Translations under genes and position numbers: made by a program
Assembly (NCBI GenBank): GCA_023078555.1
Contig: CM041197.1
Coordinates: 8,588,842-8,652,841 of the forward strand
From: Ulva prolifera
Lineage: Eukaryota; Chlorophyta; Ulvophyceae; Ulvales; Ulvaceae
Reading direction: 5' to 3'
DNA length: 64,000 bases
In this document: one piece after another, positions 2,190 through 62,977 of the stretch
Position numbering within the stretch: the first letter of the stretch is position 1
Layout of the letters: each line of letters starts with the position of its first letter
The notes under the pieces: generated by a model
The model's database searches: none
Told to the model about the DNA's origin: nothing
Seen by the model: the letters and a program-made list of their open reading frames with translations, nothing else

Positions 2190-4146
2190 ATGATGACCAT
2201 GGTAGTCGCTGGGGCCCTCGCGCTGTTTGCGCCTGTGGCCACAGATGCACGCATGGCGCCAGTAGGCGCCGAGATTCGCATCGGCGAAGCTGCCGGACTG
2301 CTCGAGCTGTCGAATGTTGGCAGTGGAAGGGATGAGGACGTGCTGGGCGGCCGTGCTGGGTGTGCTTTGCTCCTGTGCTGCGGGCCCCCCTTCAGCTGCA
2401 CTGACCCCGAAGTTTGTGAAAGCTGTAATGTGCCATAAACATCCGCACCAAGCTCGCGCCAGCATGGTGACGCGAAGGCCGGCATCTGGTCGCGAGTGCT
2501 CCAGGCAGAACCAGTCTTCACAACCCCGCCGAGCTCGCACATCGTGGTTCCGCATGCATGCCTGAGTGATACGGTGTGGCTGCAGGGGCGCAGGTGGCCG
2601 CGGCCTCCAGAACACGTTCATTTTGTCCGGCGCCCAATTCCAAACCAGCGGTGGAGGCGATGGCGTCTTTACAGTCACCAGTGGCGGAGAAACGCAGACC
2701 GCGACCATCACTGACGGCATCGTGACTGTTGAGGAGGACCCGGCACCTTCCTTGCCGGCAGACGTTGACGGCGACGAAGGGGACGAGGGCAATGAGGGGA
2801 ATGAGGGAAATGAGGGCGATGAAGGGGATGAGGGCGATGAGGGCGACGAAGGGGTTGACGGGGACGAAGGTGATGAGGGGGACGAAGGCGATGAAGGGGA
2901 TGAGGGGGATGAGGGCAACGAAGGGGAAGAGGGTGATGAGGGCGATGAGGGCGATGAAGGGGACGAGGGCACCGCGACGCGCCTGTCCCCACCATCGAGC
3001 ACGGGAACCGGCCAGTGCGGCGACCCTCTCGTGAAGGCCATGGTCGCCTTGGACAACGACAAGCGGGGGCAGGCCGGCGTGGGCCGCCTCACGTGTGACA
3101 ACACTCTTGGCGGCATCGCGTACCGTTGGAGCATCGGCCAGTGCCAGTACGAATCCCCCCCCCCCCCCCCCCCCCCTCCCACACCCTAGGCTCCCCTGTA
3201 TAATCTCTTCCGCTTCCGCTTTGTCGGTGCTTCCTACTTAGTGTCCTTCTGAGGTACAGATAGTCGTGCTGCGGTATCAGCGCTGTTTAGGGCTGGGTGG
3301 GGATGTGGTGCGGTGCACCAGGCCCCAGCCGTAAATCCAAGACACTCGCGGCTGCCGCGCCGGGAGTTTGCTCGCACAGATCGGCGTGCTGTCCCGTGGC
3401 CGGCGGATCTGCCTGACTGGTCACACGGCCGTGGCCGTGTGTTCTCAAGGCAGTCATCTGGGGCCCATGGCCACTTCCATGGGGCCTTCTGTTGTGGCTG
3501 CTTGACCCAGGGCGGACATGCGCCGTGAAAGCCAGTCCACCATATCGATGCCATGGTGGCACACACGGTGCACAGCCTGCGCTCGCCCCCTCCGTGTGCA
3601 GCCTGCATGGCCATGCAGTTGCCCGACCTCTTGCCAGTTGCTCGTTTTGCCCTCGCCCAATGTACCCCCACCCCATCCAACGGTACAAAGCAGCCACATG
3701 CCAAGTGGTGAGTGGAAGCACTTGCGCCAGGGCCGCACGAGCGGCACCCAGCTCCGGACGGCAGATCGTTGTGCGCGTCACCAAACGATGAGTTGCGCTG
3801 GCATTGCACCACATTGCACCGCTGTATCGCCTGCCACAATCAATGCTCTAGTGACTGCTGAGTGCTGTCTCAGGGGGGGCTGGGGTGCAGGGACCGCGAG
3901 ATCAGCCACGACGGCTTCAGCGGCCGCTGCTCGGAAAGCCAGCTGACGACGTGCGGCGAGAACGTCGCATTCAACCGCCCCCCCCAGCTCACCACGACCG
4001 TTGGCAACACACACATCAGCTGGATGGACTCCCCTGGCCACCGGGACAACATCCTCAACTCCCGCTTCAACGTCGTCGGGTACGGCTGGTACGTCTGCGA
4101 GGCCAACGACAGCGTCTACTGGACAGGGTTCTTCGCCGCACGCTAA
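2190..4146 (+). CDS. Secreted CAP/SCP-domain protein with acidic Gly-X-Glu repeat (copy 1)
   Basis: Three exons: 2190-2359, 2586-3146 and 3891-4146; both introns are phase 2; 328 aa. Residues 1-20 form a hydrophobic signal peptide. Residues 120-185 are 22 near-perfect triplets (DEG, with some NEG, one VDG and one EEG). The CAP domain runs from C201 to the end. The second half carries the family motifs SHDGF (H250), CGEN (E267), W288 and SPGHR (H294), with FNVVGYGW and WTGFF near the C-terminus. Six cysteines (CGDP, LTCD, GQCQ, GRC, TCGEN, YVC) suggest three disulfides. CAP proteins (PR-1, YkwD, sperm-coating type) are usually secreted and bind sterols, lipids or metal; the role here is unknown. 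Exon 1 (170 bp) and exon 3 (256 bp) match copy 2 in length exactly, which fixes the boundaries. The start could be either of two adjacent ATGs. Confidence 0.85.
2770..2970 (+). repeat. 9-bp-unit coding minisatellite (DEG/NEG)
   Basis: Inside exon 2 of CAP copy 1. The unit is GAY-GAR-GGS, with AAY at some first codons. Variation is almost entirely in third positions or in the D/N swap, so the protein pattern is kept while the DNA differs, which suggests selection on the peptide as well as slippage. Confidence 0.85.
3155..3176 (+). repeat. Poly-C run (22 C)
   Basis: Begins eight bases after the donor of intron 2 of CAP copy 1. One of five long C runs in the first 17 kb, all on the plus strand. 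The minus strand would be a G run able to form quadruplex structures. Confidence 0.9.
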
Positions 4147-5064
4147 TGGGGTGCAGCTGCCGGGTAAGCCCGGCCCGGCGCAGGCAGGCATTACGGTGTG
4201 TCGTGTTTGCCTGGGGCGTCGCGCAACTGTCCCTGTGCTTCGGCGGACGGTAGGTGAACACGTGGCTGTGCTGCGGCGCCGGGCGGCCAGCATGGCTGTG
4301 ATTGCCGATGTGCTATGGCTTCGAAGTGTGCGGGGGTGTGGTGCTGTGTGGAGTCAGGGCAGCGCTGGGAGAGACCCTGCCAGGCACGCGGCGCCGGGAG
4401 CGTGCTGGCTGCGCTGTGCTTGCCACATGATCCCGGGACCCTAGGGGGTGTTTTTTTTTTAAGGGTGGTGTGAGGCTGGGTGCTGTTCACATGGCGGGCT
4501 GGACGTAAGTGTCCATGGGTGCTGCAAAGATACAATAGGAGTGCGTGCGTGTGTATCGGTGTCCTATGCTTCGATGTCTAAATCTGGTGCTGCCGGCATG
4601 CATGGCGCTGGGTGTCCATGTGCGGCTTTCATAAGCTTCAAACATGTGTGGTGTCGTGGTTGCGCAGCGGTAGAGCTCGTTTCCTAGTCGACCAGGAGGG
4701 TCTTCAAAAGGGGGAAAAAATGTGTCTCTGGCGAAGGGGTGGTGCAGCGTGGTGTTGCGCAGCAGGAGAGTTGCCGAGCATCGGCGTGGCGCTGGGAGTG
4801 CATCTGGTGGGCAGGTCCTGTGCATCTTTTCTGAGGTGCCTTATATCACAGTAGTCCCACACAGCTGACCTGGAAGTGGACGTGGTGTGGCAGTGATGAC
4901 GCCTGGAATGGCTTGAGCCATTGGCAGTGTGGTGGCTGCGGCCATTTTCTGTGCAAGGCAGCCCCACATCTTTGCGGCCTGATCCCTTTTGCGGACAGTT
5001 GTGGCAGTTTTCCGTGGCCCTGGATGGCGTGGGCTGTTGTCTGGATGTTGGGGGATGTTATAAG

Positions 5065-5166
5065 GCAGCCCTCTGCTCTCTCAGCCATGTAACAGTGATA
5101 GTAAAGACAGCCTGTGGCTTGCAGCCCTCTGCTCTCTCAGCCATGTAACAGAGATAGTAAAGACAA
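5065..5166 (+). repeat. 56-bp tandem duplication
   Basis: A block beginning GCAGCCCTCTGCTCTCTCAG at 5065 recurs at 5121, with nearly identical sequence through TAGTAAAGACA. Two copies only. Confidence 0.85.
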
Positions 5167-8070
5167 CCCCGGAATGTGACAACTGCGGAGACCAATCCTG
5201 AGGTTAATCACCCTTTCACAGGACCCTCGCAATGCACAATTTCGGTAGCAGGTTCTCCCAGATGCAGTCTGCAAACACAGGCCATGACTGACAGTGGGGA
5301 TTACTACCCCTGAGACCTGCCCATGCTGATTGGCTGGCAGTATGCATGTATCTCTCCCAGCTTGTGGCGTCTCGAGTGTAAGGTGATCTGGGATAAAGGT
5401 TGCAGCACCTGTGCTTACCTGCCCCGTGTGGGCTTGACATCTCAGTCATGTTTCTGGCCACACGGTGAGGGGCCCTGGAGCATCATCCCGTGTGCAAAAC
5501 AACCACAGCCTTGAGTTGTGTTCACAGAGTATGACCAGCAATCTGCCCCAATCTAATAGATCACCCAGTCTGCCATGCAAGATCAACCATGGGACACGCC
5601 TGTAGACACATGGCACAGAACATCAAGCCCACACTCTTCCAGAGCTTAGCTATGTATCTATCTGCTGCATACACTCCACATCCACATCCATCCCTGATCC
5701 AGCAGTCTGATGTGTTCCACAGGTGCCAGCACAGGTGTGCAGCTGCTGAGCAGCTAATGAATACATGACTCATCCTGGTGTGTCATGCCTCAAAGCACCT
5801 TCCACCTGCCTGCTCCTCACCAAGGCAGCCCCTGAGAGATCTCACGCCACCGGAGCCCTCCAGCAGATGGAGATCTCCTGCAACAGCACCCTCGATCCTT
5901 CACACAACCACAATTATGCCAGAACCACAGACTAGACACAGCTGTGAAGGTCAGCCTTGGATTACAGCCTGTTCAAGGTAACAGTGGCCTCTGGTATCAG
6001 CATTGAAGCTGTTGCACTGGAACAATTGCATCATGAGAGCTGCCTAGTCACCCACACACCCCAGCAAGAGTCACTGTGCCACAGGCTGCAGCAGGCTCTG
6101 CAGATCACACAGGCGCTCACGCCACAGTTCATCTTGTGTCACCTCAGTGCCACAGTGTCAACAGCACCTGGTTTGCCAAGAGCACCGGGTTTGCCAAGAG
6201 CACCTGGCTCGACTGGGTGGCATGGGCCACACCATCGTCCCACAGAGGCTGTCATGTCAGAACTGGTGCCAGAAGTTGTTGACCTCCCACATTGGGCCTG
6301 GTGACTGGTCTGGTGGCAGTAGTAAACGCTCCTGGCATTTCGTTGCAGCCAAGCCGTCACATCCTCCACTATATGGCTGTTTGCCCGTGTGCCTTGCGCA
6401 ATTTATTTAGTCATGGCGTTGCCCCTCATTGCACCTGTCCTACTGCCTGTCCCACCACCTTGGCCTTGGACACATCGCCTGCCTGGCAACGGCACAGCCA
6501 GTCAACTCCTGCAGCAGCCCCTATCCCCTCCCACAACCCCCTCCCAAAAGCCAGTTGTACCTGCCAGAGAGGTCAGGCACATGCTCTGGTGGCCCATGAC
6601 ATGACAGTGCAGTCACCTTACTTGCTGGAAAATCTGTCACCTTGCTTTCTGGAAAATCTGTTGTGGCAGATCCGGTGAGGCCCGTTCCCATTCGCCCCAC
6701 CACGGCTGCAGGCGGCATCCAGCGATGCTGATTTGTCAAGGTGCCCAAATGTGGCAATCCAGTTTTGTGATCTGAGTGCTATACAACTGGACTGTCCCAA
6801 ACAACGCATATGTCAGCAGGCCAAAGAAACGAAATGTTGTCAATGGCATGTCGGCCATGCGTGACCAATGCACATGCAGCAGCTGACTTTCAAGCACCGC
6901 CACGAGGGTGACTGGGCTGCATGAGGGTGGCTGGCTGCAGCTGGGTGGCATACACAACACCCACCACCATCGTGAATCCAGCCCCACACAGCTGTGCAGC
7001 TGCAGGGATCACATGCACCTACACCAGCGGATGTAACGAATGCACAATGTGCAATTGCAATGTAAGATTTAGCCAATATCAATCACCCGCTCCTGGCCTC
7101 AATCTGAGGAGCCCCATGGCCAGCTTCCCGGACACAAAGCAATGTGGCATGATGAGATGTGCACGTGTGCTGTGTGCTGCGCTGTGGCACTGTGCTGTGT
7201 GCTGTGTGCTGCGCTATACCACTGGACCCTGGCACGTCGTTATTTGACTGTGCTTTCACTAGTGGAAACATGGGCACTGGCCAGAATTGTTCAGGACTGG
7301 GCATCCTCACCCTCAAACAGCTCAGCATTCGTGGCAATCAGCGATATGGCAACAACAACTCCATAGGGTTCACCATAGGGTTTCTGTAGCACCATAGGGT
7401 TTCTGTAGCCGCCGCTTCGTGGACTGGGCACCCGAGATGTACCTACAGCACAACCACTGCAACCACTGTGCAACCACTGCAACCACTGTGCATCGAGATT
7501 GTTGAAGTGCCTCCTAGGACTCTGCCTGCAGATCGATCCAGGATATCCTCCAAAAGCTGCAGCCGGACTCGCCCAATCAGGACCTGCATGTGGCAATGAG
7601 GCCGCTGTACCGCTAGTCGCATGCATTAGACCCGAGATGCAACACATTGCTTTTCATCAGGAGTTTGACGCCCAATTTCGGGACCGCGAGGCGCCCCCGC
7701 CGCAGGCACGATCGAGCTGCGAATTGGGCTGGGGCCCAGCTTGAAGGCCGGGCCGCGGCGCCGGCCACCTGCTGCTGCTCCGTCCTCTCGGAGTCTTCCC
7801 AGAAAATCATGTTCCTTGCAAGTCAATTGAGCAAGATCAGGCATGATGACTCAGCTGGCCAGGCTCGAGCTCCTGTGATTCGAATTTATCGGGGCTCACA
7901 CATTGCAATGGCGTCCTCCCACCCAACACGCTCAATCATCCCACTCACAAATAGCAGTCGAGTGAGGCAAAGCTGGAGTGCAGTGTACCATGGTCGTCCG
8001 TGCGGCGCACATCGACCCTACCCTACGTCTACCGGCCGGTAGACGTGGCCACGTAGCCGCTGTTGCAATG

Positions 8071-8092
8071 CCCCCCCCCCCCCCCCCCCCCC
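8071..8092 (+). repeat. Poly-C run (22 C)
   Basis: Uninterrupted C22 in intergenic DNA, followed directly by CATATGG. Same strand bias as the other runs. Confidence 0.9.
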
Positions 8093-11000
8093 ATATGGCG
8101 ACAGCCATGGCTAGCTATATTCGTATACTGAGGATTTATAGTATGGCGACGTGCACTGATCTGGTCATCCATCAGCAGGCCGCCATGCTCAAAAGTGGGC
8201 CCCCAGGGCAGCGGACTCCCATTCCCCCGGCACATGAAAGCAGCCTGATCAGACGGTCGCTAGTAGCTCGAGCACTTCGTTGGGTGTACACATGATGTGC
8301 GCGAACAGGTGGATCGAGTAACGTGGGACGACCGGCATGACCCCGGGGGCCCTGTGGCCAGCCAGGCCAGCCAGAACCTTGGTTCAAAACATGCCCCCCA
8401 GCGCCCTGAACGCGTACGTACGTAAACAATTCCACCTCTTCGTTCTATTTGCTAATGCGCATGTAGCGTCTCGATCGCCTCCTGTGTCGAAATATATCAC
8501 AACTGAAACTTAGGTATACATACATCGCGCCATGTGCATATCCTTGCATCACAATTCGGCTGAGTGGGCCCGGGCGCGTCAAGTGGCTTGCGCCGGGGTT
8601 CGAATCCGGACGCGTCCGCGCGAGCTCTGGGGCGCGCGCAATCCTCGTCGGCCCGAATGAGCAGCACGCGTACGCAGGACTGCGTATCTCGAGATAGTAT
8701 ACGCATGCAGGACTGCGCGTGCTGTATCTCATGCTCTGAGGCCTGCGTCAGGCTCATGACGAGCACGCCCGTGCGCACTGCTCGCCGACGTCTACCCGTT
8801 CTGCCTGCAGATTATGCATATATCGTTGCGCGTGCGTTGAGTCACACGGCCGCGGGGTTCGGGCGTGCTAGAAGCATGCTGACGTGGCCAACGCCACGCT
8901 GACCGCTTTGACCGCTCTCGCGCGCCTCAGCCCGGTAAACAGCAGGCGATGCTGCCAACAGGCGAGAAAAGCTAGCCAGATGCTGCTTGCTTCTACCGCT
9001 CAGTGGCTGCAGGCCGGCGAGGGCTTGGCTTTGTCACCTCCTCGATATGTGACCATTCGAGTGCGAGGCGCAGGTGAAGGCATACTGTGCACCCCGCCGC
9101 CGCCGCAGCGCAGCTGTAGTCACAACGCCGCCGCCGGCCTATGCCCTCGCGAGGCCTCGGCACTACAGGGCCTTACGGCATATGCGCATTCGTAGAGGCC
9201 ATGCATGGCGTGATGCATGGGCCTGGCAGCGGTCCTAGCTAGCGTGACCTGCAGAGCACTGTGCGCGTCCATATATGGGCGAGGAGACGGGCATGCCACA
9301 GCTATTTAGATTCTGCTGGACGACTGAGGTTTTTCTGCTGCTTGTGATTCCGATAAAGGCCTGGAAAGACCAGGATCCTTGGACGCCAAACACACAGTCA
9401 GTTAGGTGCGCACCTGGGTCAGAAGAAGCCTGCTATGAGCGCGCTAGAACTGCGAATCGCATCTTATTTTGTGAATTCGTGCTTTCAGCTGCCGTGGGCG
9501 GGTATTGCGGGCGTGGCATTCAGCAGCAGGCAGTGGTTACGTGCGCACTTCGAATTTGCGCAACGCTGGTTCCCGGGCTTCAAAGTTCTAGGCTGCTGCG
9601 CAGCAGAATCACGCCGGCTTGAGGGCAGGCGGAATAGTTGCTACGAACATTTAAAATTTTGACGTATCCGCTGACGCTGTGCGCCACTCTGCTGCTCTTG
9701 TTGAAGTCAATTGCACGAGCCAGTATACGTATTTCGCGCGCTCCTGCCTATGCATACGAGACCGGCCACTGCGGCCTCAAGTGAAGCTTGCAATGACCAG
9801 ATCCTGCCCTCATGATCTTGCCTGAGCTTGAAGTCTTACCGACTGGCGATATCTGTTTACATTTGGATGTGGGGCTCTGAGCGCGCTCAGAAGGATAGGC
9901 CGTTGACTATTTGCAGCAGAGCACGACGCAGTGGGCAGCTTAGTAGCATCGAGGCGGCGCCGCACGACGTGCCCACTCAGCTAGTTCTTGCGGCCGCGAT
10001 CTCGCCATGTGCACCACGTTGATGCCGGTACACTGATCGGCGGGGGAGTGCACAAGTATCATAATATTTTCGCTCTGTCTAGGCAAACACGCGTGCGTCA
10101 CTAATGTGCTCTGTTACAACGCATCGTGGCTGAGTCCCGATGTGCAGCCGCTGCGTTGCAGCTGCCCTGTTGCTAGCTCTGGGCAGGAGGGCGGCGGGTA
10201 ACATGCTGCACGGTTAGGGGTGCATGACGCGGCGCAGCGCAGGTGTGACCCTTGGATTTTTCAAACCTGCACCGGTTTCCGAAGCCTGCAGCAGCTGGGC
10301 GCTTGCAGACTCGATCATTCAGCACGAGACATCAGACCTTCGTGCGCAAAAGGTTTAGTTATCAAAAGACGCGCAACGCTTGCGTGTCTGTGCGTGCGCG
10401 AGCGTCGCTTGCTGTCATCCGCTTCCGCTACTCTGTGCATCCAGGCGGGGCATCGACAGGGCCATAGCTGTGCGCGACCCTGCGAGGCCGCATTTCGACC
10501 AGCGCTTGCGCGCTTCCGCCACCGTACCTGCGCCACACGATGCGTCGCTCTGATGCGTCCGTACGTTTACGTTGAGTCATCGCCTCAGCAGCGCTGCCTT
10601 TCATCATGCTTGAGCTCAGTACGAAGGTCGAGAACAAAATTGTAAAAATTTTATGCACTTCGTCGACCTCGTTGTTCCGCCATCACCTCGTTGTAATCCA
10701 TGGGAAGCATGAGCGGCCCCCATGGGTGTGGAATTCCGTGGCGTAGCTGCGTGCACTCGCAGGCTGGGCGTTTGCACACATGACTACATGAACACTCGGA
10801 TGCATACGAGCCTGCGGACTTACGAGGACCAGTCATGCAGTGCCCGGTTGCATGACAGCCTATCCTGATGCTTGTGCTTCAGCATGACCGCAGTCACGCC
10901 TGATGCCGCTCACAATGTGCACACTCGGCGCACAGGGCCAGCGCGCGAGTCGACGTGAGCTGACCTGAACTCACAGGTCTCGGGCGGTCGCACGGTGCCG

Positions 11001-11400
11001 CTGCGGCAAGTCTGCGCATGCCGCGTCCGCGCATAGTGTTCGGACGGGCCACTCGGCCTGCTCTCGCCACAGCTGCATCGCGATGCATCGGCCGCAGGGC
11101 ACTGTACACTCGGCACATGCACATCCCGCATTCGTTGCTCTTTCCGTGCACCTCGGCGGCAGCGCCGCATGCATACCCACGGCGTTCAGATCTGTGCGCT
11201 GAGTGCACCGCGGCGATCACTAAATTCTTGTCACCACAAGAGATCATGCATGCTGTCCTACGTGTCGGAGCGTGCATGCGATGCATGCTGTGCACCGGCC
11301 AGCAGTTGTGCGACGGCACAGGAAGGCATCATCAATCATCATAATGGAAGAGATGGCTTGGCAGCCACTTTGTCTGAACGTAAAATTGTATCAGCTGGCG

Positions 11401-12018: not shown

Positions 12019-13777
12019 ATGGCTTTCTTCACCGTCGCCACCGCCGTGGCCGCACTCTTTGCGCCCGCTGCCGTTGCGGGCCGCGCTGCGCCAGGGGCCG
12101 CTGTGGAGGCCTCGATCTCCACCGTAGCTGTCGGCTACACGCTGCGCTCTGAACTCGCAGACATCGCCCTTGACAACCTATCCTCCCAGTGCGTTGCCCC
12201 GGGGCCCCTCGAGCTCCATACCCCCCCCCCCCCCTTTTAAAAAGGGCTGAATTCTAGCCTCTGCATCTCTTCTGTGACGAGGGTGATGTTTGCTGTGCGC
12301 ATGTGCTGGGGCTGGCTCAACCTGACCGGGCTGCGAGGGCAAGCCTGGCCATGGTGTGCAGACTGTGCGGGGAGGGGGGGCGAGGATCCCGCGCAATGCC
12401 ACAAACTGATACGCTGTACTGGTGCCACCGATGCCACTGCCTTTGCTTTGAATTCGACGCAGTTACCCGCCTGAGGCAACCCAACCAGCTACAGGACTGG
12501 GTCTACCGCCAGCGCAGCTTATACAAGTAGTGCCGCGGCTCGACATCTGCTGTCCGTGAAGCTGTTGCGAAGGGTGCGTAAAGTTCACGGCCGACTGTGT
12601 GCAGAGAGAACTCCCGCCGTCTGCAACGCTGGACTTGGAGCTGGAAGTTTGGTGGAAGCGATGGCATGGGTGACCTGATGACCCGCACCGGCTCCACCCG
12701 CAACACGGTCATGGACTCCGACACCGGCGGCGCCGACGAGGGCGACGAGGGCGACGAGGGCAACGAGGGCAATGAGGGCAATGAGGGAAATGAGGGCAAC
12801 GAGGGAGATGAGGGCACCGGGGGCAGCAGCGGCGGAAATGGTGGCGATGAGGGTGATGAGGGCAACGAAGGCGACGAGGGCGATGAGGGCGACGAAGGCA
12901 ATGAGGGTGATGAAGGCAACGAGGGCAATGAGGGTGGCAACCCGACCCCGAACCCGACCCCCAGCGCTTCCCCCACACCGACCCCCACCCCCCCGTCCGG
13001 CGGCAGCAAGACCGGCACCGGCACGTGCGGCGACCCGATGGTGAAGCAGATGGTCGCCAACGACAACACGAAGCGCGGCAGCCCCCTCGGCTGCGACCAG
13101 AAGCTCGGCAACATTGCTTATGACTGGAGCAAGGGCCAGTGCAGGTGCGAGTCATGCCACGAGCGCTTTCCGCCCCAAACCCATGTGTCAGCCACTAGAA
13201 ATGCAAATTGGCACGGAGAGCTCGTCACGGAGATCTCAGAGGCAGCGCCGCCGTGTTGGGTGCACGCGCGAGTGCAGCCCATCTAGATCTGCGCGCCTTT
13301 GAACAGTAAAACTTTGTGGCATGCAACAGCCCCCAGGTGCCGGGCCCCCCTTGCATTTTCAGCACAGTCCGGCCGAGTTCCGGAACCCTGCCGGAACTGA
13401 ATTCCGGAACTGAGTTCCGGAACTCAACACATAACCTGTGGCAATCCAGTGGTATAGCGGCCATATCACTGGGTTGCCACAGAAACATTCATAGATGTTC
13501 TGAGTGGACACTGGTGTGCAGGGCGCGCAAGATGAGCCACGACGGCTTCAACGACCGCTGCGACGCCGCGGGGTACCCCGCGTGCGGCGAGAACGTGGCC
13601 TTCAACCGCCCCCCGCAGATGGATATCACCGTCGACGACACCCACCGCCGCTGGATGAACTCCGACGGTCACCGCAAGAACATCCAGAACACCGGCTTCA
13701 ACGTCGTCGGCTACGGCTGGTACGTCTGCGACGACGACCGCCTGTACTGGACCGGCTTCTTCGGCAAGAAGCCGTAG
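12019..13777 (+). CDS. Secreted CAP/SCP-domain protein with acidic Gly-X-Glu repeat (copy 2)
   Basis: Three exons: 12019-12188, 12605-13144 and 13522-13777; both introns phase 2; 321 aa. A signal peptide of about 20 residues (LFAPAAVAG end) is followed by a linker, then the DEG/NEG triplet repeat coded by 12735-12935. The repeat is interrupted by TGGSSGGNGG and followed by a Pro/Thr/Ser linker (NPTPNPTPSASPTPTP). The CAP domain begins at TCGDP; H243 (SHDGF), E260 (CGEN) and H287 (SDGHR) are the conserved residues, with FNVVGYGWYVC and WTGFFGKKP at the end. The Pro-rich hinge is found only in this copy and resembles flexible linkers of extracellular proteins. The last exon is exactly 256 bp, as in both paralogues. 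Intron 2 contains a palindromic MITE (13437-13481). Function beyond a secreted CAP protein is not known. Confidence 0.87.
12221..12234 (+). repeat. Poly-C run (14 C) in intron 1 of CAP copy 2
   Basis: C14 followed by CTTTTAAAAAGGG-type sequence about 32 bases after the donor. Like copy 1 intron 2, the run sits early in an intron. Confidence 0.85.
12735..12935 (+). repeat. 9-bp-unit coding minisatellite (DEG/NEG)
   Basis: Two blocks of GAC/AAC-GAG-GGC units in exon 2 of CAP copy 2, separated by a Gly/Ser-rich interruption of ten residues. Confidence 0.85.
13370..13426. repeat. Cluster of GTTCCGGAAC palindromes
   Basis: Within intron 2 of CAP copy 2, variants of GAGTTCCGGAAC recur several times in both orientations, including the perfect palindrome GAGTTCCGGAACTC at about 13413-13426. 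It sits just before the MITE at 13437. Confidence 0.6.
13437..13481. mobile_element. 45-bp palindromic MITE, copy 1
   Basis: Starts TGTGGCAATCCAGTGG and ends CACTGGGTTGCCACA, so almost the whole element is one inverted repeat around a GC-rich centre. It lies in intron 2 of CAP copy 2. Flanks TAACC and GAAAC do not form a clear duplication, unlike the two related copies. Confidence 0.65.
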
Positions 13778-15114: not shown

Positions 15115-15139
15115 CCCCCCCCCCCCCCCCCCCCCCCCC
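15115..15139 (+). repeat. Poly-C run (25 C)
   Basis: Uninterrupted C25 in intergenic DNA, same strand as the other runs. Confidence 0.9.
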
Positions 15140-15492
15140 TCTGTAAGTGAATGGCCACGCTCCCCAGCTCCCCAGCTGCAGCTACTGCTGGCAACAGTAT
15201 ACTGTATACAGCTGTACCGTGGTAGCTGCAGGTGTGGCACCCAGTGGTATAGTGTTGCATCTCTGGGCTGCTACAGCAGCAACCAGGTTTGACGGCTTGA
15301 AGTGTGTGTGGCCAACCTGCGTTCAACACAGATATATCTGTGTTGATGTATCGATGTGCTCTCGAGACTACGGATCCGTGTCTTCGTATGTTGATCAGTC
15401 AACGGCGAGCTCCAGCTCCAGGTGTATTAGAGAAGCCAGAAAGAGGAGAACTTTCTATCTGAAGCACAGTCCCGGTCAGTTTTAAAGGTGAC

Positions 15493-15537
15493 TGTGGCGA
15501 TCCAGTGGTATAGCGGCCATATCCCTGGATTGCCACA
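15493..15537. mobile_element. 45-bp palindromic MITE, copy 2
   Basis: TGTGGCGATCCAGTGG to CCTGGATTGCCACA, flanked by a perfect 5-bp duplication GTGAC at 15488-15492 and 15538-15542. The target duplication shows that this very short sequence moved as a unit. Confidence 0.8.
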
Positions 15538-16793
15538 GTGACGCACAGTACACAAGCACACAAGTCAGACCGAAGATGTCCTCTTTAGGATGCGGCTACG
15601 CAAACCCAGGTTTGCTTTACCTTACTACACAAGCCTCCTGTGTGGGTACCTACGCCACTTTCGCCCAGAGTAGTGCGAGGGGCACGTGTCGCGGTGGCAG
15701 TGCCAAAATCTGCCCTAGAACTTTTGAGGCTGCAGAGACTTGATTGTTTCAAGCGCAATGCCAGATTATGCTTGGTCCACTTGCGCCGGAACAGTTCTGA
15801 GCTCACCTACAGGAATCCCAGATCGGGTGTTGCACCTTACCTGAGATGCTGCTGACTGGGCACGCCGCGGCGACAGCTTGCAAACCTTATGCACAACACT
15901 AGTACAGTACGAACGTTGGCCGCTGCACAGGACAAGCAGAGTCAAGCCGTGGATGTGAGTCAGGGTATATATGGTGAACAAGATGTTTCCCACAGTGCTG
16001 TGAGGCAGCATGAGCATGATGCAAGTTCAAGTTCATACCTCTGTGTTTTCTGTTATGCTGCAGCCTGGTGGGCATTTTAGTGCAATGCAAGCTATTTCAC
16101 ATACGGTCCCAACGCAGTCACACTTACACACCAGTCCTGGCAAGTTGAGATACCTTCCCTAGGCCTGGGTCTCTGGCTTTGGTTCCATTGGACCCCGCAA
16201 CCCGCATTTCAATGGGCAGTCTCTGCCACATGCTCTGCTCTATTTACAAACTTGCAAGTTAACATGTTGAGCTTATACCAATTCGTTTGGTGGTAATGTA
16301 CTGTAGCTCACTTTTCAGCAGCTCCCAACTGCAAAGTTGTTTCACAACTCTGTCGTGTTGCTTACGTGGAATAATCGCGCACATACAGGCATGAGACTGG
16401 GACCATTGGTGACTCGAATGACCGAGTCCAAGGGGCACCACTGTGACTTACATTCTCTGCACGTCCGTCCCACAAGCTTGTGCCTCGTTCACAGCAGCAT
16501 CTCATTCTCAGTCACAGCCTCCATCTTGTAACTAGTTACAGTACTGGCCAATCTAGACAGCCGGAGAGAATTCATTTGGCAAGAATGGCAGTCCTAGCTA
16601 GAGCATGTCACGCATTCCTAGAACCGTTTGTGTGGTCCTTGGCAGCTCGTAATCGAGAGGAGGAGCTGCACAGCAGGGGGGTATGTGCTGCCCCCCTCCA
16701 TGGCCATGTAGCTCCAGTGGCCCGGGTTCTTGCAAGTTATGAGTGCAGGCCTAGAACAGTCAACTAATCATCTGGGGGGGAGTCCCCCCTTGT

Positions 16794-16818
16794 CCCCCCC
16801 CCCCCCCCCCCCCCCCCC
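16794..16818 (+). repeat. Poly-C run (25 C)
   Basis: Uninterrupted C25; a short G7 stretch lies about 25 bases upstream. Confidence 0.9.
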
Positions 16819-17554
16819 ATTCACAGCCCGGGTTCGCAGCCCAGCAAGTTGCTCCAAACTTACAGCCCGTTGTCCAGCTGGCTGGATCCAGGCATCCATC
16901 ACTGCTGCGCCCCACAATGCCCCACAAGTTGCTCCTTGCGAGGCCTCGTGGATCCAACACCACAGGATATCCATATGGTACAACAGGGCTGTCCGGCGTG
17001 CAACACTAGACTGCATTTATCTCGGCACGAGATAGTGCTTTTTCACGTGGTGGGATCTCAGTGAGACATATATACTATAGTAGCATTGTAATGGCAGTTG
17101 CTACCACCCTCACTGCTGCTCACCTGAGGAGTGCTCACCTGAGGAGCAAGTATACGTGGAAACACTGTAAAACAGCAGAGCTGCCAGCGGAGAGGTGGAA
17201 TTACAGGTTCACCACTGGCAATTGCACCGCAACCCAATCACAACCCAATCACAACGGCACTGGGCCCTGACCAGGCTGGCCTGTGAGATTTCTCGCAACT
17301 TGCAGATGCTGGGCAGCAAGTAGAGCAGAACACCCTCCTGATCACCTGATCACCAGCTTGAGATGCTCCTACAACGCCCTGCAGATCAGGTGAATCATGC
17401 TGATCAGCTGACAAGGGTGACACAGGACAGACCTGTCCTCTGGTCCTCTGCATATGTTGGCCCAATCGATTTCAAGCTTACAACAAGCATACAGCACATC
17501 ACTGTGAGACAGAGTGTGTTGCAAGGACCCCCGGTTGCACATGCATGCTGCTTC

Positions 17555-17634
17555 TGTGGGCAATCCAGTGATATGGCCGCTATACCACTGGATGCTTGCA
17601 CGTCGCGACGTGCAAGGATCACTGGATTGCCACA
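17555..17634. mobile_element. 80-bp palindromic MITE, copy 3
   Basis: Same termini as the 45-bp copies (TGTGG...AATCCAGTG and CACTGGATTGCCACA) with the core inverted. An extra perfect 22-bp palindrome (CTTGCACGTCG and its mirror) sits inside the right half. Flanked by a perfect 5-bp duplication GCTTC at 17550-17554 and 17635-17639. Confidence 0.82.
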
Positions 17635-19015
17635 GCTTCCAATCTATATCTTTCTCCAGCTGGACCTAGGTGCTCGTGGCCCGTCCTACAGCAAGGTCTC
17701 CGTGACAGAGGGGCCACAGAGACCACGTGGCAGAGGGGCCACGTGGTGTTCCGAGTCACACAGACTGTGCCTTTTTTCGCGGTGCTGCCCGCATCGCCTC
17801 CTTTGTCCTTCTAACACAGACTGTTCCCTGTTGGCACAGATGTTCCTCACGAGGTTATCTGCACAACGTTGTGCTCTGAGATCTTGCTCCTTTCAGGGCA
17901 ACTGCAGTACAACTTCATTCTCCCCCTCTCCCATATGCATCGCGCAGGGTCCGTACGTTCAACACCTCATCATCACTGCCAGTGGCAGTATTGTTGAAGA
18001 AGCTCCTGAGTATGATTGCACACTGCAAATTCATGACACACATACGCATCCCATGCATCCCATCCCATGTGTACTGGTGGCACTGATGTTTGTGCCATGC
18101 AGTAGCTACTGGGGCGCAAGAGCACCTAGATTGTTCTGGCTTCTAGAAGCTCAGCTGAAGATCAGTGAACTAAGCTTGCAGGCTCTGCTGTGCAGAACCT
18201 CCATCTGGCTGTGCAGAAGCATCTACTTTTACAGCTGCTGGCAACGGAAACGCATGCCTGGCACCAAGAGTTTGTTCACAGCTGGCCTGGCCCGTGTTGG
18301 CTTCGAACCCTGATCGATCGAGGACACGTGATCCGGCCATGGGGCAGCTGCAGGTGGAGGCAGCCTGCGGAGACTCGAGCTGTAGCATACACGCGGAAGT
18401 GTTGTAGGGGCAAAACGCTGCGCGGTAGCACGCAAAACTGAGCCATTGTCAGCGGGTCGTCACGGCGTGCCGGCGCGCGCAGCATGCGATTATTCCACGC
18501 AAGCACTGCCACGCAGCATGCAACGCACAGTGCCATCTCACATCCCACGGTACCGTACGTGCACTCTGGCGGCAGTGTATCACATGCCTGTATAGGCAAA
18601 TGAACGGGTGCATCAAGAAGAAAACATATATGCCATACAAAACACAGGCATCTTCTCCGTTAGGGTGCTCTCGCGACGTTGGGGGAGCTCCTCGCAAACG
18701 CGCGGCTCACTCCGCGCATTTCCTCGTCGCCCACCGGAGTACCCCGGCGCCGTCCCAGAAAGCTGCCCGGACTTTGATCAAGAAGATTTGTTTGGCCTGA
18801 ATTTCCGGCGGACTGTACAGTCCGTATACATGTAGACCACTGGTCGATGCTCCTTGGCCACCATATGTGGCTCCTATCTAGGTAATTTACAAAAGAGCCT
18901 CCTATACCTCATATCCAGGTATCTCGATAGTCTCGAGTCGAGGCGTCACATGCAGTCATCCGGGTGACCGGCCAGCGGGGCTATAGGCGGCCCGCATCGC
19001 GGCCGGGGTCGCAAC

Positions 19016-20007
19016 CAGTGCTCTACAACCCCCGTATTTTATGGAGGGATTCCCGCTGAGTTTTTCTATTTTTCAGAGGGCAAGCACCGCTGGTATGCTG
19101 AAATTTCGAAGGGCTGTCCCGCCGTAATTGTTTTTTTCTGGAGGGATGCCACAAATATTTCGGGCTCGCTGCGCTCGCAATCATATATGTCTGCTGAAGT
19201 AAGGTAGTGAGGAATGACCTTTGCAGTCATATACATTTACCTCCAAGGCCTGTTAAATTTGTGTGGGCAACAACAGCAACATACACATTCAGTCGCCCTC
19301 TTGCATACCAAAGGTCAGCAAGCGCTCTAACTCATCACGCTCAATGTCCTGCTCATCATCATTGTCACTATAACCTACCTCCTCACCACCTTCAGCACCT
19401 GGAAGCACATCAGACAAAACTGCGTCCCACGCCTCATCAGGCTGCATATGGCTACTGCCTCAGCAAGCTTACGGACGAGGAGGTCACAATTTGAATCTTT
19501 CGCCAGTTTCTCATACATGTCTATCAGGGTGAGTGCACCCTCCTTATCATCTATGGGCCTGGTGGGATCAAAATGCTGCTCGCGCAAGTCTTCGTATGTG
19601 ATAGCTTGTTTCACACGTATTTGAGAAGGGTGGCCACATGCGTTGATATGCGGCGGTCACCAATTAGCAGCTTGAGCAGAGAGAAGCCCCGCTCGACTTG
19701 GGCAGACGAAGTTGGCATTATCTCTCCTACACTGTGCACCTAGGTGCAGCTGCGCGTCAAGATCGCTCGCTTCGCTCGCTCGTGTGCTCGCAGCATTATC
19801 TATGTGAACACATCCCGCACGCTTCGCGGGCAACATTTCAGCGGGCAAGACCGCTCAGACGCCAGAGACACAGCGGGCTGCGCCCGCTGGCCTTTGCTGT
19901 AACAGCCCATTTTCAGCGGCGTAAACCGTCGACTTTTCAAAACCTTGGCGGCATTTTCAGGAAAAACGTCTATTTCAGCGGGAAAACCGGCGGTTTGTAG
20001 AGCACTG
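19016..20007. mobile_element. hAT-family DNA transposon, 992 bp, internally deleted
   Basis: Left end CAGTGCTCTACAACC; right end is the reverse complement of CAGTGCTCTACAAACC. Both ends share a subterminal TTCCCGCTGA. It is flanked by a perfect 8-bp duplication GTCGCAAC at 19008-19015 and 20008-20015. It carries only the C-terminal part of a hAT transposase on the minus strand (19289-19724), so it is a non-autonomous derivative. The ends closely match the 124-bp MITE at 1081-1204. Confidence 0.9.
19289..19724 (-). pseudogene. hAT transposase, C-terminal remnant
   Basis: Reading the minus strand from 19724, the peptide has the hAT dimerisation-region signature PTSSAQVERGFSLLK, followed by GDRRISTHVATLLKYV. 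A TGA follows at 19611-19613. The same frame then continues as KQAITYEDLREQHFDPTRP and KLAEAV; coding sense then shifts frame near 19440 to DEAWDAVLSDVLPG and an acidic tail ending at 19289. No N-terminal zinc finger or DDE core is present. It is therefore a broken remnant inside the 992-bp element. Confidence 0.75.
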
Positions 20008-22730
20008 GTCGCAACGGGCCGTTGCGGCAGCTGCAGCGTGCGCGGTCCTGTACAGGCGCCACCTGTGCGCGCGCAGGGCACGTGCGGACGTTTGTGTATT
20101 CCCAGCCAGGCAAGAAAACCTTTAAACGTTAACAAAAGAGTGGACATAAATTCTTTAAACGTTAATTATGCATGTGCCGAATCCGGGGTGCCTCGTTCCG
20201 GCGCCGGCTGATACAAGGGCTTTGCATCGAGATCGACACGTAGCCTGTGGATCCTGTTGTGGTAATTATCTTCTCCCGAGAAGAGTTACAGAAGGGTGAA
20301 CGGGAGAACATGTGACGCGTAGCCTGTGGCCATGGCTGCAGGTGCCCTGACTGAAGCGGTGCTGCGGCAGCCTCCTGAAAGGAGATTTTGTGCATGCCAC
20401 GGGAGTCTTGTACGATATATCAGTGTGGCCACTGGCCAGGGCTGCATGCAGCAGCAGGCCGTGCAGGGTCGGCCCTCCTGGTCTGTCTCCAGCTGACGTT
20501 GCCGCTGCTGCACAGTCACCTCGCATGGTTTGTGCCTCGATACGTGTGGCCGGATTTGAAATTCGGACATCAGCTGGCCGAAAGCTTGAATTCGAGAAGC
20601 TTCGTGCGGTTGGGTGTCTCGAGGCCTGTCCACCTAGGACTGCAACGCATGATGCTGGGCCTGATGACGTACACAGAGTTCGATGCAGTCCCGTCCGGCA
20701 AACTTAATGGCGGGGCACCGGAAGATCTGTGCTACCATCAGGCCGTCGAAAGTGTCTAGAGGTGGTGTGCGTAAGCACTACAACATGTACATGCCACAGG
20801 CAACCCAGTTCCTCACTTCCGTCCGCAAAACCATGCATGCGACGCGCAGTGATGTTTAGCTACGTGCGCGTGCTCGCGAATGCAGCTTGCTTCGCACAGC
20901 GGCTGATGATTGGGCGGGCATAAGGGCCGCGAATGCGCCAACTGCAAGAAGCCATGGAGGCTCTGCACGACGCGGAACTCGAGGGCTTCCAGCACCCCAG
21001 CTGGACCCAGTGTGCCAGCGCGCGATCGGCTGTACTGTGAGACCGGTCGAGATCGCATGTGCAGCGTGCACATCGGTACCCAGCTCGATCTCTGTCGCGA
21101 CATGTCGAGTCACACGTCCCAGGCCAGCGGGGAGCAAGCTTGTGCTGCCTGCGAAATTAGAACCGAGCCTCGAGCTTGCTTCGCATCGACTCGGGTGTTA
21201 GATGTTTTCAAACATATCTGGAAATACTCATCAATTATTGCAGACCTGTGTAGGCGTTCTTCAGGCGCGCCGGATCAAGTTTGCAACGGCTACATTTGTG
21301 TCGCATCTCATTCGAGAACACAAGAGTCGAGTTAGTTGCCGGTGCACATATGCATGGACATGGTTTGGGAGAGCTATGCGCCGTATAATGCAGCGACTGG
21401 AAACACATACATATCTGCATGATCAGACTCTTCATATTATCTGTACGTGCCAGCAACGTCATAAGCCTGCGAGGTCTTTGGAAAAATCGTCTGAGAGTCT
21501 GGAGTGCCCGGATCTGCCAGACGATAGCTTGCCCCGAAGAGCTGAATAGGTACGTTGATGTTCATACCAATTGTTTTTGTTGCACTGTGTTGATGCGGTT
21601 CTTTGCGTCTGATTTTGCCTTTCTGCCGGCTTAGGAGCATGAATCACCGGGAAACTGGCGGACACATGACTCCGGTCCAGACGCTGCAAAGCATGTAAAT
21701 TGTTGCTTGTACACAAATCAAGAGCATATTGTGTTTCATTCATCTCCGCGACGTTTCTGTCATGCTTTTGATCACGAAGTATGCGGTGCCTCTCTACTTC
21801 CGCGCCTGTTGCATCGGCGTCGCAAGTCCACGCCTCTCGTCAGGCGCATCCCCAGCTCCTTCTGAGCGAATGACGTTTACTTTTCCTCTGTTGGCGCGGC
21901 GCGACAGGCGGCACGGTAGGATGCGCCTGGTCAGTGCTAATGGCTGATGAACCTTTCCGCCAGCCTCGCGAGCTCGGGCTGCTCAACAGTCGATATGGGT
22001 GACTCATGTCCTCCTGCTCGCCTCAGTCACAGGTGCATGTAAAAGTTATTGTAAGCATCTGCATACACAATCTCGCGAGTTTATGTTGCACACTGTGCCA
22101 GGGCACAGCGGCATCAGCACTGTTGGATGACCTGTTTCCAGCTGCTGTGCGAGGGCTATGGTCCCTGTGAAAGCGCCAGTAGCGAACCATCCGATCGAAC
22201 GATGCCAATGGATCGAGTCTTCGTCTTGCCTTGGCGCATTCACAGCCGCATGCACATACGGCCGTTGCGAGCACTGCATGCAAATGTTTCCCTGCATTGG
22301 TGACCTCGACGATGAATAAGCCTTAAATTTTGCTCAAACAGCAATTTCGAAACATGCACAGGACACGAATCGGCTACGGATGTTCCAAGCTACTACCGCA
22401 TGCCGCACAATTGGTTTGTGTCACAGTCACACGCGCGGGTCTACAAGGGTATACGTATACGACGTGCAGGGCTTTCGACAACTCGCAATGCTTGAAAAAG
22501 AATTCTTCGCTCGGTCCCACCATTTGGTTTCATGTTGCCGTTGACAATTCATGCTGCCAAGCCTCTTGCCACACGTGCCGGATCAACGCTTGGCAGCATA
22601 TTTTTGCCCTGCTGGACACTGCAGATGCAGGCAACCACCCGATGACGCTCAGTAACAACCGAAAAGATGACACCATGACGTGGATTGTACGTTTGCAGGC
22701 CACCCTTCCTTGACAGAAGAACAGAACAAA

Positions 22731-25420
22731 ATGTTTCGTGGAATCGTTCTTGCCGCTGCCGCTGTGGCCTGGTCACCTGTAGCAACATCTACATCTGCAC
22801 CTGCTCATGGCGAAGTCGAATTCGAGCATGGCATCTCCGTTGCTGCTTTCCTCGGCCCACGGCAGGAGTCTCAGACGCCACTAGACCTCGTGGATAACAC
22901 GGGCAGTCGGCGTCTCCTGCGATGGGTACGGTACCAGTGCTCGGTGATACACTCTCCCTTGTCGCAATGTGCCCACGTTCAGGCAAGAAACGCCGAATCA
23001 CTGAAGCAATTCGCCTCTTGGTGGCGTGATGTATATATCTCCTGGAGGTCTCATGTACATTCAGCACGTATGTCCTGCTGCATTGGGAGCCAGCGATTGA
23101 CGTCTGTCCTGTGCTCTTGCTGTGGTGCAATACGAAGGCTCCACCTGTTGATTTGTAGCTCACGTTTTGGCACATTATTTGAAAGGATTGCAGAATACAC
23201 CCTCTGAATGGTTTTGCATGTGGCTCTCTGCTGTCTGCTGTGTGGCATGCTAGTGGCCTTCGCTGGTCGTCTCGTTTCTCTGTGGCTTCGCTGCGCTGCT
23301 TTTGCACTTGTGTGCGCCAAGCCACAGAGAAAGACAGCAGATGTTTGATGCACAGATGTATCCCCCACATTCTGCCAGCACAAACTTCAAGCTTGAGCTT
23401 GGGTGCTCAATTCAGTTTGTTAGTCATGACTCATCTGAAGGCCTCTCTTGGTGACAGGTGTCATGCCTGGCTTCCAGTACCTCATGCCTGCCTGGACCAG
23501 GAGGAAACATTTGCATCCCCAGCTGTCAATATTCGATTACCTCATAGCTGTCAGCACCAGGTGGGAGCCTGGTGAACCAGAACAGTTTGGACAGTTTTGA
23601 CCTGCTTCAAACTCATCAGCAGCTGACTCTATCGTCCTCGTTGTGTCTGCACCCTGCCTCGTTATCGACTACCTGTGTCGTAGTGTGCTTTGCCTGTGCC
23701 AAGAACAGCCAAGCCGTGGTGCCCACCTGGCTGCATCGGTGTACGTGCCTTTTCACTCGCCTGCCCTTTTCACTCGCCCTGTCCCATGTAGTCTCTGATA
23801 TGATGTGTGCATCACATCAGTTGCCTGACACCTGTGGCTCCAATGCGTCTGTCACCTGACACTCGGTGGAACCATGACACCCAAGCAAGTGTGCCGTGTT
23901 GCACGTCAACGCTTAGGTGGCTGGGTTTTGATTATGTGTGGCGTTGTCGTTGTACCTCCCTTGCGCCTCGTGAGGGGGTCACGATGACCTTGGAGAGGCC
24001 GGCGGCACCTCCGGACACGAAACGAATCGAATCCGACACGAATCAAGCACGCGCTGTGTCACCTGAGGATATGCATACCTAAATGTACCTGATGCCTGGA
24101 GAGGCCGCCCCTGCTCTGTTGGCCTGCGTCGGGGCAGATTACCTAGCAATCGGGAGGTACATTGAGAGTTGCCAATGGGACGCCGCCTCGCGTTGAACTG
24201 TAGGCGGAGCCGCATATTCGGGTTATGTCTGTGAACTTGTGTACCCCACGGTTGCTGACGCTGCCTGTCGCATGCAGAGGTGGAACATGAACAACGGTAA
24301 CGAGGGGAATGAGGGCAACGAAGGCAACGAAGGGAATGAGGGCAACGAGGGGAACGAGGGCAAAAGGCGCAAAAAGAAGTCCAGAAGCAACAACGGAGAC
24401 GAGGGCAACGAAGGGAATGAGGGTAATGAAGGCAACGAGGGCAACGAAGGGAATGAGGGCAATGAAGGGAATGAGGGCAATGAAGGGAATGAGGGCAAGA
24501 CTCGCAAGCCGGCCCAGGTCCGCTCACGCGCCACGTCCAACCCGTCTGCTCCTTCCGACAACTCGAACGGCAGCGGCTCATGTGGGGACCCAATGGTCAA
24601 GCAGATGGTGTCGAAGGACAACAGCAAGCGCATCAGCAGCCTCTCTTGCAACCAGGAGCTCGGCAACATCGCCCTGACCTGGAGCAAGGGCCAGTGCCAG
24701 TATGCCCCCGCCCCACCCCTCCGCCCTGCTTGCTGCCCCTCCTCCTGTGTTGCCGCTGCACTCTGCTAGATTAATAACAACAGTCCTGCTGTGGTGGGGC
24801 TACGTGCTGAACAGTTGGCTGAGTGATATGGTGCGGCCATGTCCAAGCAGTGTGCTGATCACGAAGTCACCAAACAGTGACAGGGTCAGACAAAATACAG
24901 CCAAAGAGTCTCTTCCGGATCATCGGTCACACACACAGCCCCCTGCTGATCATCAGTGCTTGACTGCGTCCATGCTTCGTCACGGGGGCACAATGCTGCT
25001 TGCCTCGCCCACGTGTGCGCCTTGACCGATCGCTTGCGCGACATGGGTAGCAGTTCCGTGTATCCACGCGATCGCATCTGCGCAAGCGTGTCTGTCGGGG
25101 GGATCCTGCGGCTGGAGCTGCATGCGTGCGCGGGCGGGCGTCTGAATCGATCGCCGGTGTGCAGGGCCGGCGCGATCAGCCACAACGGCTTCGGCGGGCG
25201 CTGCGCACAGGCCGCGAACAAGGCGTGCGGCGAGAACGTGGCCTACAACCGCCCCCCGCAACTCGGTGAGACGGTGGAGGACACGCACCGCCGCTGGATG
25301 GAGTCGGACGGCCACCGCGCCAACATCCAGAACGAGGGCTTCAACATCGTCGGCTACGGCTGGCACGTCTGCAGTGGAGACGACCGGGTCTACTGGACCG
25401 GCTTCTTCGGCAAGAACTAG
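22731..25420 (+). CDS. Secreted CAP/SCP-domain protein with Asn-Glu-Gly repeat (copy 3)
   Basis: Three exons: 22731-22925, 24278-24699 and 25165-25420; intron 1 phase 0, intron 2 phase 2; 290 aa. Exon 1 codes for a signal peptide (GIVLAAAAVAWSPVATS) and a short linker that aligns loosely with copy 2 (VE..ISVA and a final LVDN/ALDN). The repeat is mostly NEG, split by a strongly basic insert, KRRKKKSRS, absent from the other copies. The CAP domain starts at SCGDP; H212, E229 and H256 are the conserved residues, and it ends WTGFFGKN. Intron 1 is long (1352 bp) compared with 226 and 416 bp in the paralogues. An alternative phase-2 splice (22930 to 24280) would also keep the frame, so the exon 1-2 junction is less certain than the rest. 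Confidence 0.8.
24299..24496 (+). repeat. 9-bp-unit coding minisatellite (NEG)
   Basis: AAY-GAR-GGS units in exon 2 of CAP copy 3, in two blocks either side of the basic KRRKKKSRS insert. Asn has replaced nearly all of the Asp seen in copy 1, lowering the negative charge. Confidence 0.85.
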
Positions 25421-62975: not shown

Positions 62976-62977
62976 CA

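What the first reader, a model, noticed from the sequence alone, without database searches (positions are those of the whole stretch)
2190..25420. Tandem triplet of secreted CAP proteins fused to a Gly-every-third acidic repeat
Three same-strand genes about 10 kb apart share exon structure: the first two have 170-bp first exons, and all three have 256-bp last exons. They keep the CAP residues while the repeat and linkers change freely. A CAP domain behind a proline-free Gly-X-Glu array is not an arrangement I know from described families. It may be a lineage-specific wall, mucilage or interaction protein family.
Basis: partly seen in the sequence, partly recalled or inferred. Interest (0 to 1): 0.8.

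Follow-up and report, generated by a model that had tools for sequence, protein, structure and literature searches.

The report
Acidic-stalked secreted CAP protein trio
An unidentified eukaryote carries three neighbouring genes for apparently secreted proteins that join a bacterial-style CAP domain to a negatively charged glycine-rich stalk of nearly constant length, an unusual combination whose role outside the cell is untested.

Summary
Three intact three-exon gene models lie at 2190-4146, 12019-13777 and 22731-25420 (+). Each has a hydrophobic N terminus, a proline-free (D/N)EG array and a C-terminal CAP domain (PF00188, E 6.6e-12, 3.9e-9, 1.9e-9). Last exons are 256 nt in 3 of 3, after a phase-2 intron.

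Three refinements. (1) The array does not change freely: its span is 66, 67 and 66 residues, each with an interruption, and base variation falls mainly in third codon positions (26, 10 and 81 of 198, breaks included). (2) The CAP is of bacterial YkwD type: the only three PDB sequences matched up to E 10 are ones I recall as bacterial. It keeps their His/Glu/His but carries six cysteines that aligned relatives nearly always lack. (3) Gene 3 has its first intron at another place.

No CAP-plus-array protein appeared among 50 CAP ORFs or 8 array loci, or in the papers listed. No eukaryote sequence collection was searched, so novelty is provisional.

Most likely function, inferred: an extracellular CAP domain held on a polyanionic, perhaps Ca2+-binding spacer in a wall or mucilage. 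New variant of a known kind; moderate interest.

The parts
2190..2359 (+). Gene 1 exon 1: signal-peptide-like N terminus (170 nt)
   Evidence: model; 12-residue hydropathy peak 2.35
2586..3146 (+). Gene 1 exon 2: pre-array segment, array, linker, first part of CAP
   Evidence: GT-AG sites
2773..2970 (+). Gene 1 (D/N)EG array, 66 residues, with VDG and EEG breaks
   Evidence: window coordinates worked out from the exon table
3891..4146 (+). Gene 1 exon 3: rest of CAP domain and stop (256 nt)
12019..12188 (+). Gene 2 exon 1: signal-peptide-like N terminus (170 nt)
12605..13144 (+). Gene 2 exon 2: pre-array segment, array, Pro/Thr-rich linker, first part of CAP
12735..12935 (+). Gene 2 (D/N)EG array, 67 residues, with a 10-residue Gly/Ser-rich break
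   Evidence: window coordinates worked out from the exon table
13522..13777 (+). Gene 2 exon 3: rest of CAP domain and stop (256 nt)
22731..22925 (+). Gene 3 exon 1: signal-peptide-like N terminus; runs past the junction used by genes 1 and 2 (195 nt, phase 0)
24278..24699 (+). Gene 3 exon 2: array, basic linker, first part of CAP
24299..24496 (+). Gene 3 (D/N)EG array, 66 residues, with a basic 12-residue break
   Evidence: window coordinates worked out from the exon table
25165..25420 (+). Gene 3 exon 3: rest of CAP domain and stop (256 nt)

Best explanation
Three diverged, apparently functional tandem paralogues in an unidentified eukaryote encode secreted extracellular proteins. The C-terminal CAP domain is of the bacterial (YkwD) type, probably stabilised by disulfides (six conserved Cys). 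It is presented on an acidic Gly-(D/N)-Glu stalk of about 66 residues that behaves as an extended polyanionic spacer, probably binding Ca2+ or cationic matrix components, so the CAP domain is held within a wall, mucilage or other extracellular matrix. There it binds a small ligand (lipid, metal or glycan) rather than acting as a classical enzyme. Shown: open gene models, domains, array conservation, CAP type. Inferred: secretion, disulfides, spacer and calcium role, ligand binding. My confidence is about 0.9 in the anatomy and about 0.35 in the function; the score below is for the whole statement.
For: PF00188 above its cut-off in 3 of 3. Frame-consistent GT-AG introns, a phase-2 intron inside CAP and 256-nt last exons in 3 of 3. 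Protein-level constraint on CAP and array, while introns and 2-kb flanks show no similarity between copies (the only hits were a dispersed 47-bp repeat within gene 2's own surroundings). Array span 66/67/66; no proline in 3 of 3 arrays, net charge -39, -29, -12. Pocket-type residues: H46 in 29 of 30, E63 in 40 of 41, H90 in 50 of 50 relatives with a residue there. Six Cys in CAP in 3 of 3 models, none in the rest of the proteins. Hydrophobic N termini in 3 of 3. Nacrein gives a precedent for an acidic Gly-every-third array fused to an extracellular domain (PMC4066178, passages). CAP domains of fungi and worms are reported to bind sterols or fatty acids (PMC4921858, PMC5893428 and others, search listing with abstract starts only).
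Against: dN/dS of 0.46-0.48 is not strong constraint, and the third-position excess in CAP alone is weak. E63, H90 and two of the six Cys positions lie in the peptide patterns used to collect relatives, so those counts are biased; H46 does not. The equal array spans may simply be inherited. Gene 3 has a basic insert in its array and gene 1's CAP is itself slightly acidic (-2), so one common role may not fit all three. There is no ligand or calcium evidence.
Confidence: 0.55

Rival explanations
1. The arrays are genuine collagen-like segments that trimerise, so that three CAP domains sit at the end of a short triple-helical rod, as in collectins.
For: Gly at every third position; PF01391 above its cut-off in 2 of 3 (30.3 and 31.0 against 27.2 bits; the third 24.0).
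Against: No proline in 3 of 3 arrays, and no K or R except the 7 in the break of gene 3; each array has at least one break. The Pfam match can come from glycine periodicity alone. Recalled: triple-helix stability needs imino acids or opposite charges.
Confidence: 0.12
2. The acidic segment is a propeptide or intramolecular mask: it is cut off in the secretory pathway or outside the cell, releasing a short active CAP protein; the basic clusters of gene 3 would be processing sites.
For: Gene 3 has KRRKKKSR inside the array and a basic linker before CAP. Gene 2 and 3 CAP parts have net charge +2 and +1 against the negative array.
Against: Genes 1 and 2 have no K or R in the array, and gene 1's CAP is itself -2, so processing or masking would not be common to the family. 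Conservation of the array as protein fits either reading.
Confidence: 0.2
3. Decaying or neutral tandem duplicates: the arrays are microsatellites that happen to be open, and the genes have little function.
For: Moderate dN/dS and weak third-position bias in CAP; repeats and a retrotransposon in the same 64 kb.
Against: All three models are open from start to stop with GT-AG sites; 0 of 2000 neutral simulations per pair match the residue conservation; array variation is mainly at third positions even with breaks included; span is near constant.
Confidence: 0.08

Closest known systems
Bacterial YkwD/SCP-type CAP proteins (TIGR02909; PHROG 16914 'sporulation protein'; PDB 4ifa)
   Same: Best profile matches: TIGR02909 E 3.4e-11, 5.3e-10, 2.7e-9; phrog_16914 E 5e-10, 2.2e-8, 1.6e-8; 4ifa E 2.5e-4 is the only PDB sequence below E 0.01; the His, GEN and W-M-x-S-x-GHR residues are shared.
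   Different: Scores of 37-43 bits are far below the TIGR02909 cut-off of 171; six Cys that aligned relatives nearly always lack; introns; signal-like N terminus with acidic array.
Brown algal PR-1 clade 5 (PMC12879055; abstract, sections 10, 11 and 16 read)
   Same: CAP proteins of a eukaryote that the authors place among bacterial CAPs and that lack the C-terminal CAPE motif; tandem duplication is described for other clades of that family.
   Different: The paper gives clade 5 two conserved Cys and a long coiled coil; here six Cys and a Gly-X-Glu array. 'Collagen' has no occurrence in the paper's main text. Whether the window is from a brown alga is unknown.
Nacrein and nacrein-like carbonic anhydrases (PMC4066178; passages)
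   Different: Different partner domain (carbonic anhydrase), third residue Asn not Glu, mollusc; analogy only.
Tandem CAP arrays such as Lucilia cuprina SCP/TAPS (PMC7694928; passages)
   Same: Tandem same-family CAP genes, most of three exons.
   Different: Animal CAPs; 'repeat', 'glycine' and 'acidic' have no occurrence in that main text.
Yeast Pry1 and parasite VAL CAP proteins (PMC4921858, PMC5893428; search listing with abstract starts only)
   Same: Secreted CAP domains with lipid binding, a model for ligand binding.
   Different: No CAP chain named as eukaryotic appears in the PDB search up to E 10.

Membership tests
CAP superfamily (PF00188) | Pfam score above the curated cut-off | tested here: met
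   46.8, 37.8, 38.8 bits against 21.1, 3 of 3
CAP superfamily (PF00188) | alpha-beta-alpha sandwich fold | not tested
   Spliced proteins are not read letter for letter from the DNA, so no fold job was sent
CAP superfamily (PF00188) | Conserved His and Glu residues of the CAP pocket (role recalled) | tested here: met
   H46, E63, H90 invariant in 3 of 3 and in 29/30, 40/41, 50/50 relatives (the last two biased by the search patterns)
YkwD family (TIGR02909) | Score above NCBIfam cut-off 171 | tested here: not met
   43.1, 39.3, 37.0 bits: related, not a member
Plant/animal/fungal PR-1-type CAP | C-terminal CAPE motif PxGNxxG (as given in PMC12879055) | tested here: not met
   0 matches in 3 of 3 models
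Plant/animal/fungal PR-1-type CAP | Nearest solved relatives are eukaryotic CAPs | tested here: not met
   3 sequences up to E 10: 4ifa, 4d53, 4h0a; I recall all three as bacterial
Brown algal PR-1 clade 5 | Two conserved Cys, coiled coil | tested here: not met
   Six Cys in CAP, 3 of 3; coiled coil not scanned; no clade 5 sequence was available to compare
Collagen-like proteins (PF01391) | Profile score above cut-off | tested here: inconclusive
   2 of 3 above 27.2 bits
Collagen-like proteins (PF01391) | Pro/Hyp or opposite-charge pairs that stabilise a triple helix (requirement recalled) | tested here: not met
   0 Pro in 3 of 3 arrays; K/R 0, 0 and 7, the 7 all in the break of gene 3
Secreted proteins | Cleavable signal peptide | tested here: inconclusive
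   Hydrophobic N termini, 12-residue means 2.35, 2.20, 1.97; no dedicated predictor available

The most novel reading that the evidence does not exclude
A eukaryote acquired a bacterial YkwD-type CAP domain, refitted it for the secretory pathway with six cysteines, and mounted it on a length-controlled (22-triplet) polyanionic Gly-X-Glu stalk: a new class of modular extracellular-matrix protein in which the acidic stalk acts as a calcium-set ruler, expanded in tandem.
Probability: 0.2. Interest if true: 0.55.

Novelty: new variant of a known kind. Interest (0 to 1): 0.36.

Why it matters
CAP domains are widespread, yet their mode of action is often described as poorly understood (for example PMC7340583, abstract start). 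A bacterial-type CAP with added cysteines in an intron-bearing gene family would be a clear case of such a domain adapted to eukaryotic secretion. The near-constant acidic Gly-X-Glu stalk gives a simple, testable model of a proline-free polyanionic spacer, with a parallel in molluscan nacrein. If only the domain combination is new, it is a modest addition to CAP diversity.

Tried and rejected
Triple-helical collagen: kept only as a rival, because the arrays lack proline. Chance open frames or microsatellite: judged unlikely on the simulations and the third-position bias; my first count of that bias (14/2/72 of 180) picked units by their protein motif and so left out the breaks, and the recount with breaks (26/10/81 of 198) is weaker but still clear. 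An antisense gene: the antisense strand is also open over the arrays, but CAP continues in the sense frame in the three models. A fourth copy in the window: none found; best further CAP-profile match E 0.19. Recent segmental duplication: rejected; between copies blastn finds only exon 3 (3 of 3 pairs) and the array-to-CAP part of exon 2 (genes 2 and 3), each reaching at most about 24 nt into the adjoining intron, and none in introns or 2-kb flanks tested alone. The same architecture in viral or bacterial loci: of 53 loci fetched for CAP, 50 gave a profile-confirmed CAP ORF and 0 of 50 had a run of six Gly-X-Y triplets. Of 8 loci fetched for (D/N)EG arrays, 0 had a CAP hit; in 7 of 8 the array lay in an open frame of 40 or more residues. 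Literature (10 searches, listings unless said): array letters gave one engineering paper, not opened. Four papers hold both Pfam accessions; in the passages seen the two are in separate proteins or in a table of families. The other listings showed no such architecture in titles or abstract starts, but were partial: 20 of 57, 4 of 4, 15 of 752, 12 of 21, 12 of 65, 10 of 12. Two further searches were for nacrein (10 of 15 listed) and for CAP lipid binding (8 of 26 listed). Identifying the organism: no genome held, no tRNA, no Rfam family; a 24-base pattern from the palindromic repeat gave 0 hits in viral contigs. The organism remains unknown; that it is a eukaryote rests on the introns and an LTR retrotransposon.
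Full report
What is there. The finding's coordinates are correct. Splicing the three loci with GT...AG introns gives three open proteins of 328, 321 and 290 residues (donor and acceptor contexts). Genes 1 and 2 begin with 170-nt exons and gene 3 with a 195-nt exon; all three end with a 256-nt exon entered in phase 2, inside the CAP domain. Pfam finds CAP in 3 of 3 (E 6.6e-12, 3.9e-9, 1.9e-9) and the collagen repeat model in 2 of 3 above its cut-off. CAP parts are 60-72% identical between copies. Introns and 2-kb flanks show no similarity between copies, so the duplications look old; in the whole-window comparison the matches reach at most about 24 nt from exon 3 into the intron. A six-frame search with the CAP profile finds no further copy in the window.

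Is it more than chance. If the observed base changes between CAP parts are placed at random, none of 2000 simulations for each of three pairs keeps as many residues, and 1739-1899 of 2000 contain a stop. Against this, dN/dS is 0.46-0.48 (NG86: 0.30/0.62, 0.33/0.73, 0.21/0.45; YN00 failed) and the codon-position bias in CAP alone is weak (46/36/58 of 123 each, chi-square P 0.07). The arrays give the stronger signal. Counted over every triplet length of the span, breaks included, minority bases at codon positions 1, 2 and 3 number 26, 10 and 81 of 198 each (Fisher P 6.6e-19; gene 1 alone 4/1/29 of 66, gene 2 13/5/22, gene 3 9/4/30). In gene 2 one residue of the break was left out to keep register. 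An earlier count restricted to motif units gave 14/2/72 of 180, and all 14 first-position cases there are the G/A choice between D and N. A DNA-level microsatellite is not expected to do this. Units in an array are not independent, so the P values are indicative only.

The stalk. With one definition (first to last (D/N)EG triplet) the arrays span 66, 67 and 66 residues. Each is broken: VDG and EEG in gene 1, TGGSSGGNGG in gene 2, KRRKKKSRSNNG in gene 3, with the first break after 9, 9 and 7 triplets. That is 22 triplet lengths in each gene, with one residue over in gene 2. So the break sequence and the D/N choice vary while the span hardly does. The arrays hold no proline; net charge is -39, -29 and -12. 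The linkers to CAP are 15, 30 (Pro/Thr-rich) and 28 (basic) residues.

Gene 3 differs. Its first exon runs through a segment (SRRLLRW) whose counterpart in gene 2 (NSRRLQRW) lies in exon 2 (alignment; exons). The join RRLLRW-RWNM resembles RRLQRWTWSW of gene 2, which supports the modelled splice, but the intron sits at a different place and in phase 0.

What kind of CAP. A profile of the three CAP parts matches three PDB sequences up to E 10: 4ifa (2.5e-4), 4d53 (0.11) and 4h0a (0.78); only the first is significant. I recall all three as bacterial, while the PDB holds many eukaryotic CAP chains (also recalled). NCBIfam's YkwD domain matches at E 3.4e-11 to 2.7e-9, far under its cut-off of 171 bits, and PHROG 16914, annotated as a sporulation protein, at 5e-10 to 2.2e-8; both libraries are prokaryotic or viral, so they cannot show a eukaryotic relative. 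The CAPE motif described as conserved in plant, animal, fungal and brown algal clade 1-4 CAPs (PMC12879055, sections 10 and 11 read) is absent in 3 of 3. Among 51 aligned domains from viral and bacterial loci, H46 is kept in 29 of 30, E63 in 40 of 41 and H90 in 50 of 50 that have a residue there. The six Cys of the family are matched in 0 of 0, 0 of 28, 0 of 31, 0 of 18, 3 of 38 and 1 of 39. E63, H90, the first Cys and the Cys before GEN lie in the peptide patterns used for collecting relatives, so those counts are biased. The reading is a bacterial-type CAP with cysteines added, as expected for an oxidising secretory route; disulfides are inferred. Whether this reflects gene transfer cannot be decided without eukaryotic sequences.

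Is the architecture known. Of 53 loci fetched for CAP, 50 gave a confirmed CAP ORF and 0 of these 50 has six consecutive Gly-X-Y triplets. Of 8 viral loci with (D/N)EG arrays none has a CAP hit, so such arrays recur as acidic stretches elsewhere. The brown algal PR-1 survey, which describes domain partners across kingdoms, has no occurrence of 'collagen'; for brown algae its text names WSC, lectin, CBM and coiled-coil partners, while the many combinations of other kingdoms are in a figure I could not see. Four papers hold both PF00188 and PF01391; in the passages I saw, the two are in separate proteins or in a table of families. These searches cover open-access text and prokaryotic or viral DNA, several listings were capped, and no eukaryote collection was searched. 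Novelty is therefore 'not found', not 'absent'.

How it probably works. Most likely the protein is secreted, the CAP domain folds with disulfides, and the acidic stalk keeps it extended and ties it through Ca2+ or cationic partners to an extracellular matrix, where CAP binds a small ligand. The anatomy is shown at the level of gene models; the rest is inference. [quoted passage not shown] Sterol and fatty-acid binding by other CAPs (abstract starts) motivates the ligand idea. Rivals are a collagen-like trimer, a removable propeptide (suggested by the basic clusters of gene 3), and decaying duplicates.

Verdict. A real, intact tandem family with an unusual domain combination in an unidentified eukaryote; a new variant of a known kind. 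Interest is moderate, mainly for the bacterial-type CAP with added cysteines and the near-constant proline-free acidic stalk.

Noticed in passing
55534-62382 (-): Apparently complete Ty1/copia-like LTR retrotransposon with a 1931-aa open frame (55933-61728); its terminal repeats match over 396 bp with 1 difference, and TGGCA borders it on both sides, suggesting a recent insertion. Assignment to copia is by reading the frame, not by a family search.
   Followed up: partly
54944-55531 and 62383-62977: The retrotransposon sits inside a 172-bp satellite array, splitting it in two.
   Followed up: partly
13436-13482, 15492-15538, about 17549-17593: A 47-bp near-palindromic dispersed repeat, one copy inside intron 2 of gene 2; a 24-base pattern from it has no match in viral contigs.
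   Followed up: partly
3155, 8071, 12221, 15115, 16794: Five poly-C runs of 14-25 bases on the + strand and no poly-G run of 10 or more in 64 kb; two lie within about 35 nt after exons of genes 1 and 2.
   Followed up: no
44390-46378 (+): Probable glycosyltransferase gene with a DXD sugar-binding region (PF04488, 23.3 bits against a cut-off of 23, E 1.1e-4, at 45920-46375), flanked by 67% alike direct repeats at 43152-43611 and 46663-47179.
   Followed up: partly
49247-53728: A family of dispersed repeats of about 90-270 bp in both orientations.
   Followed up: no
47649-47685: Interstitial GTTAGGG tandem repeat, telomere-like.
   Followed up: no
L010, 4911-5453 (+): A CAP protein with three cysteines in the CAP part, in a large (254-kb) viral contig.
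   Followed up: no
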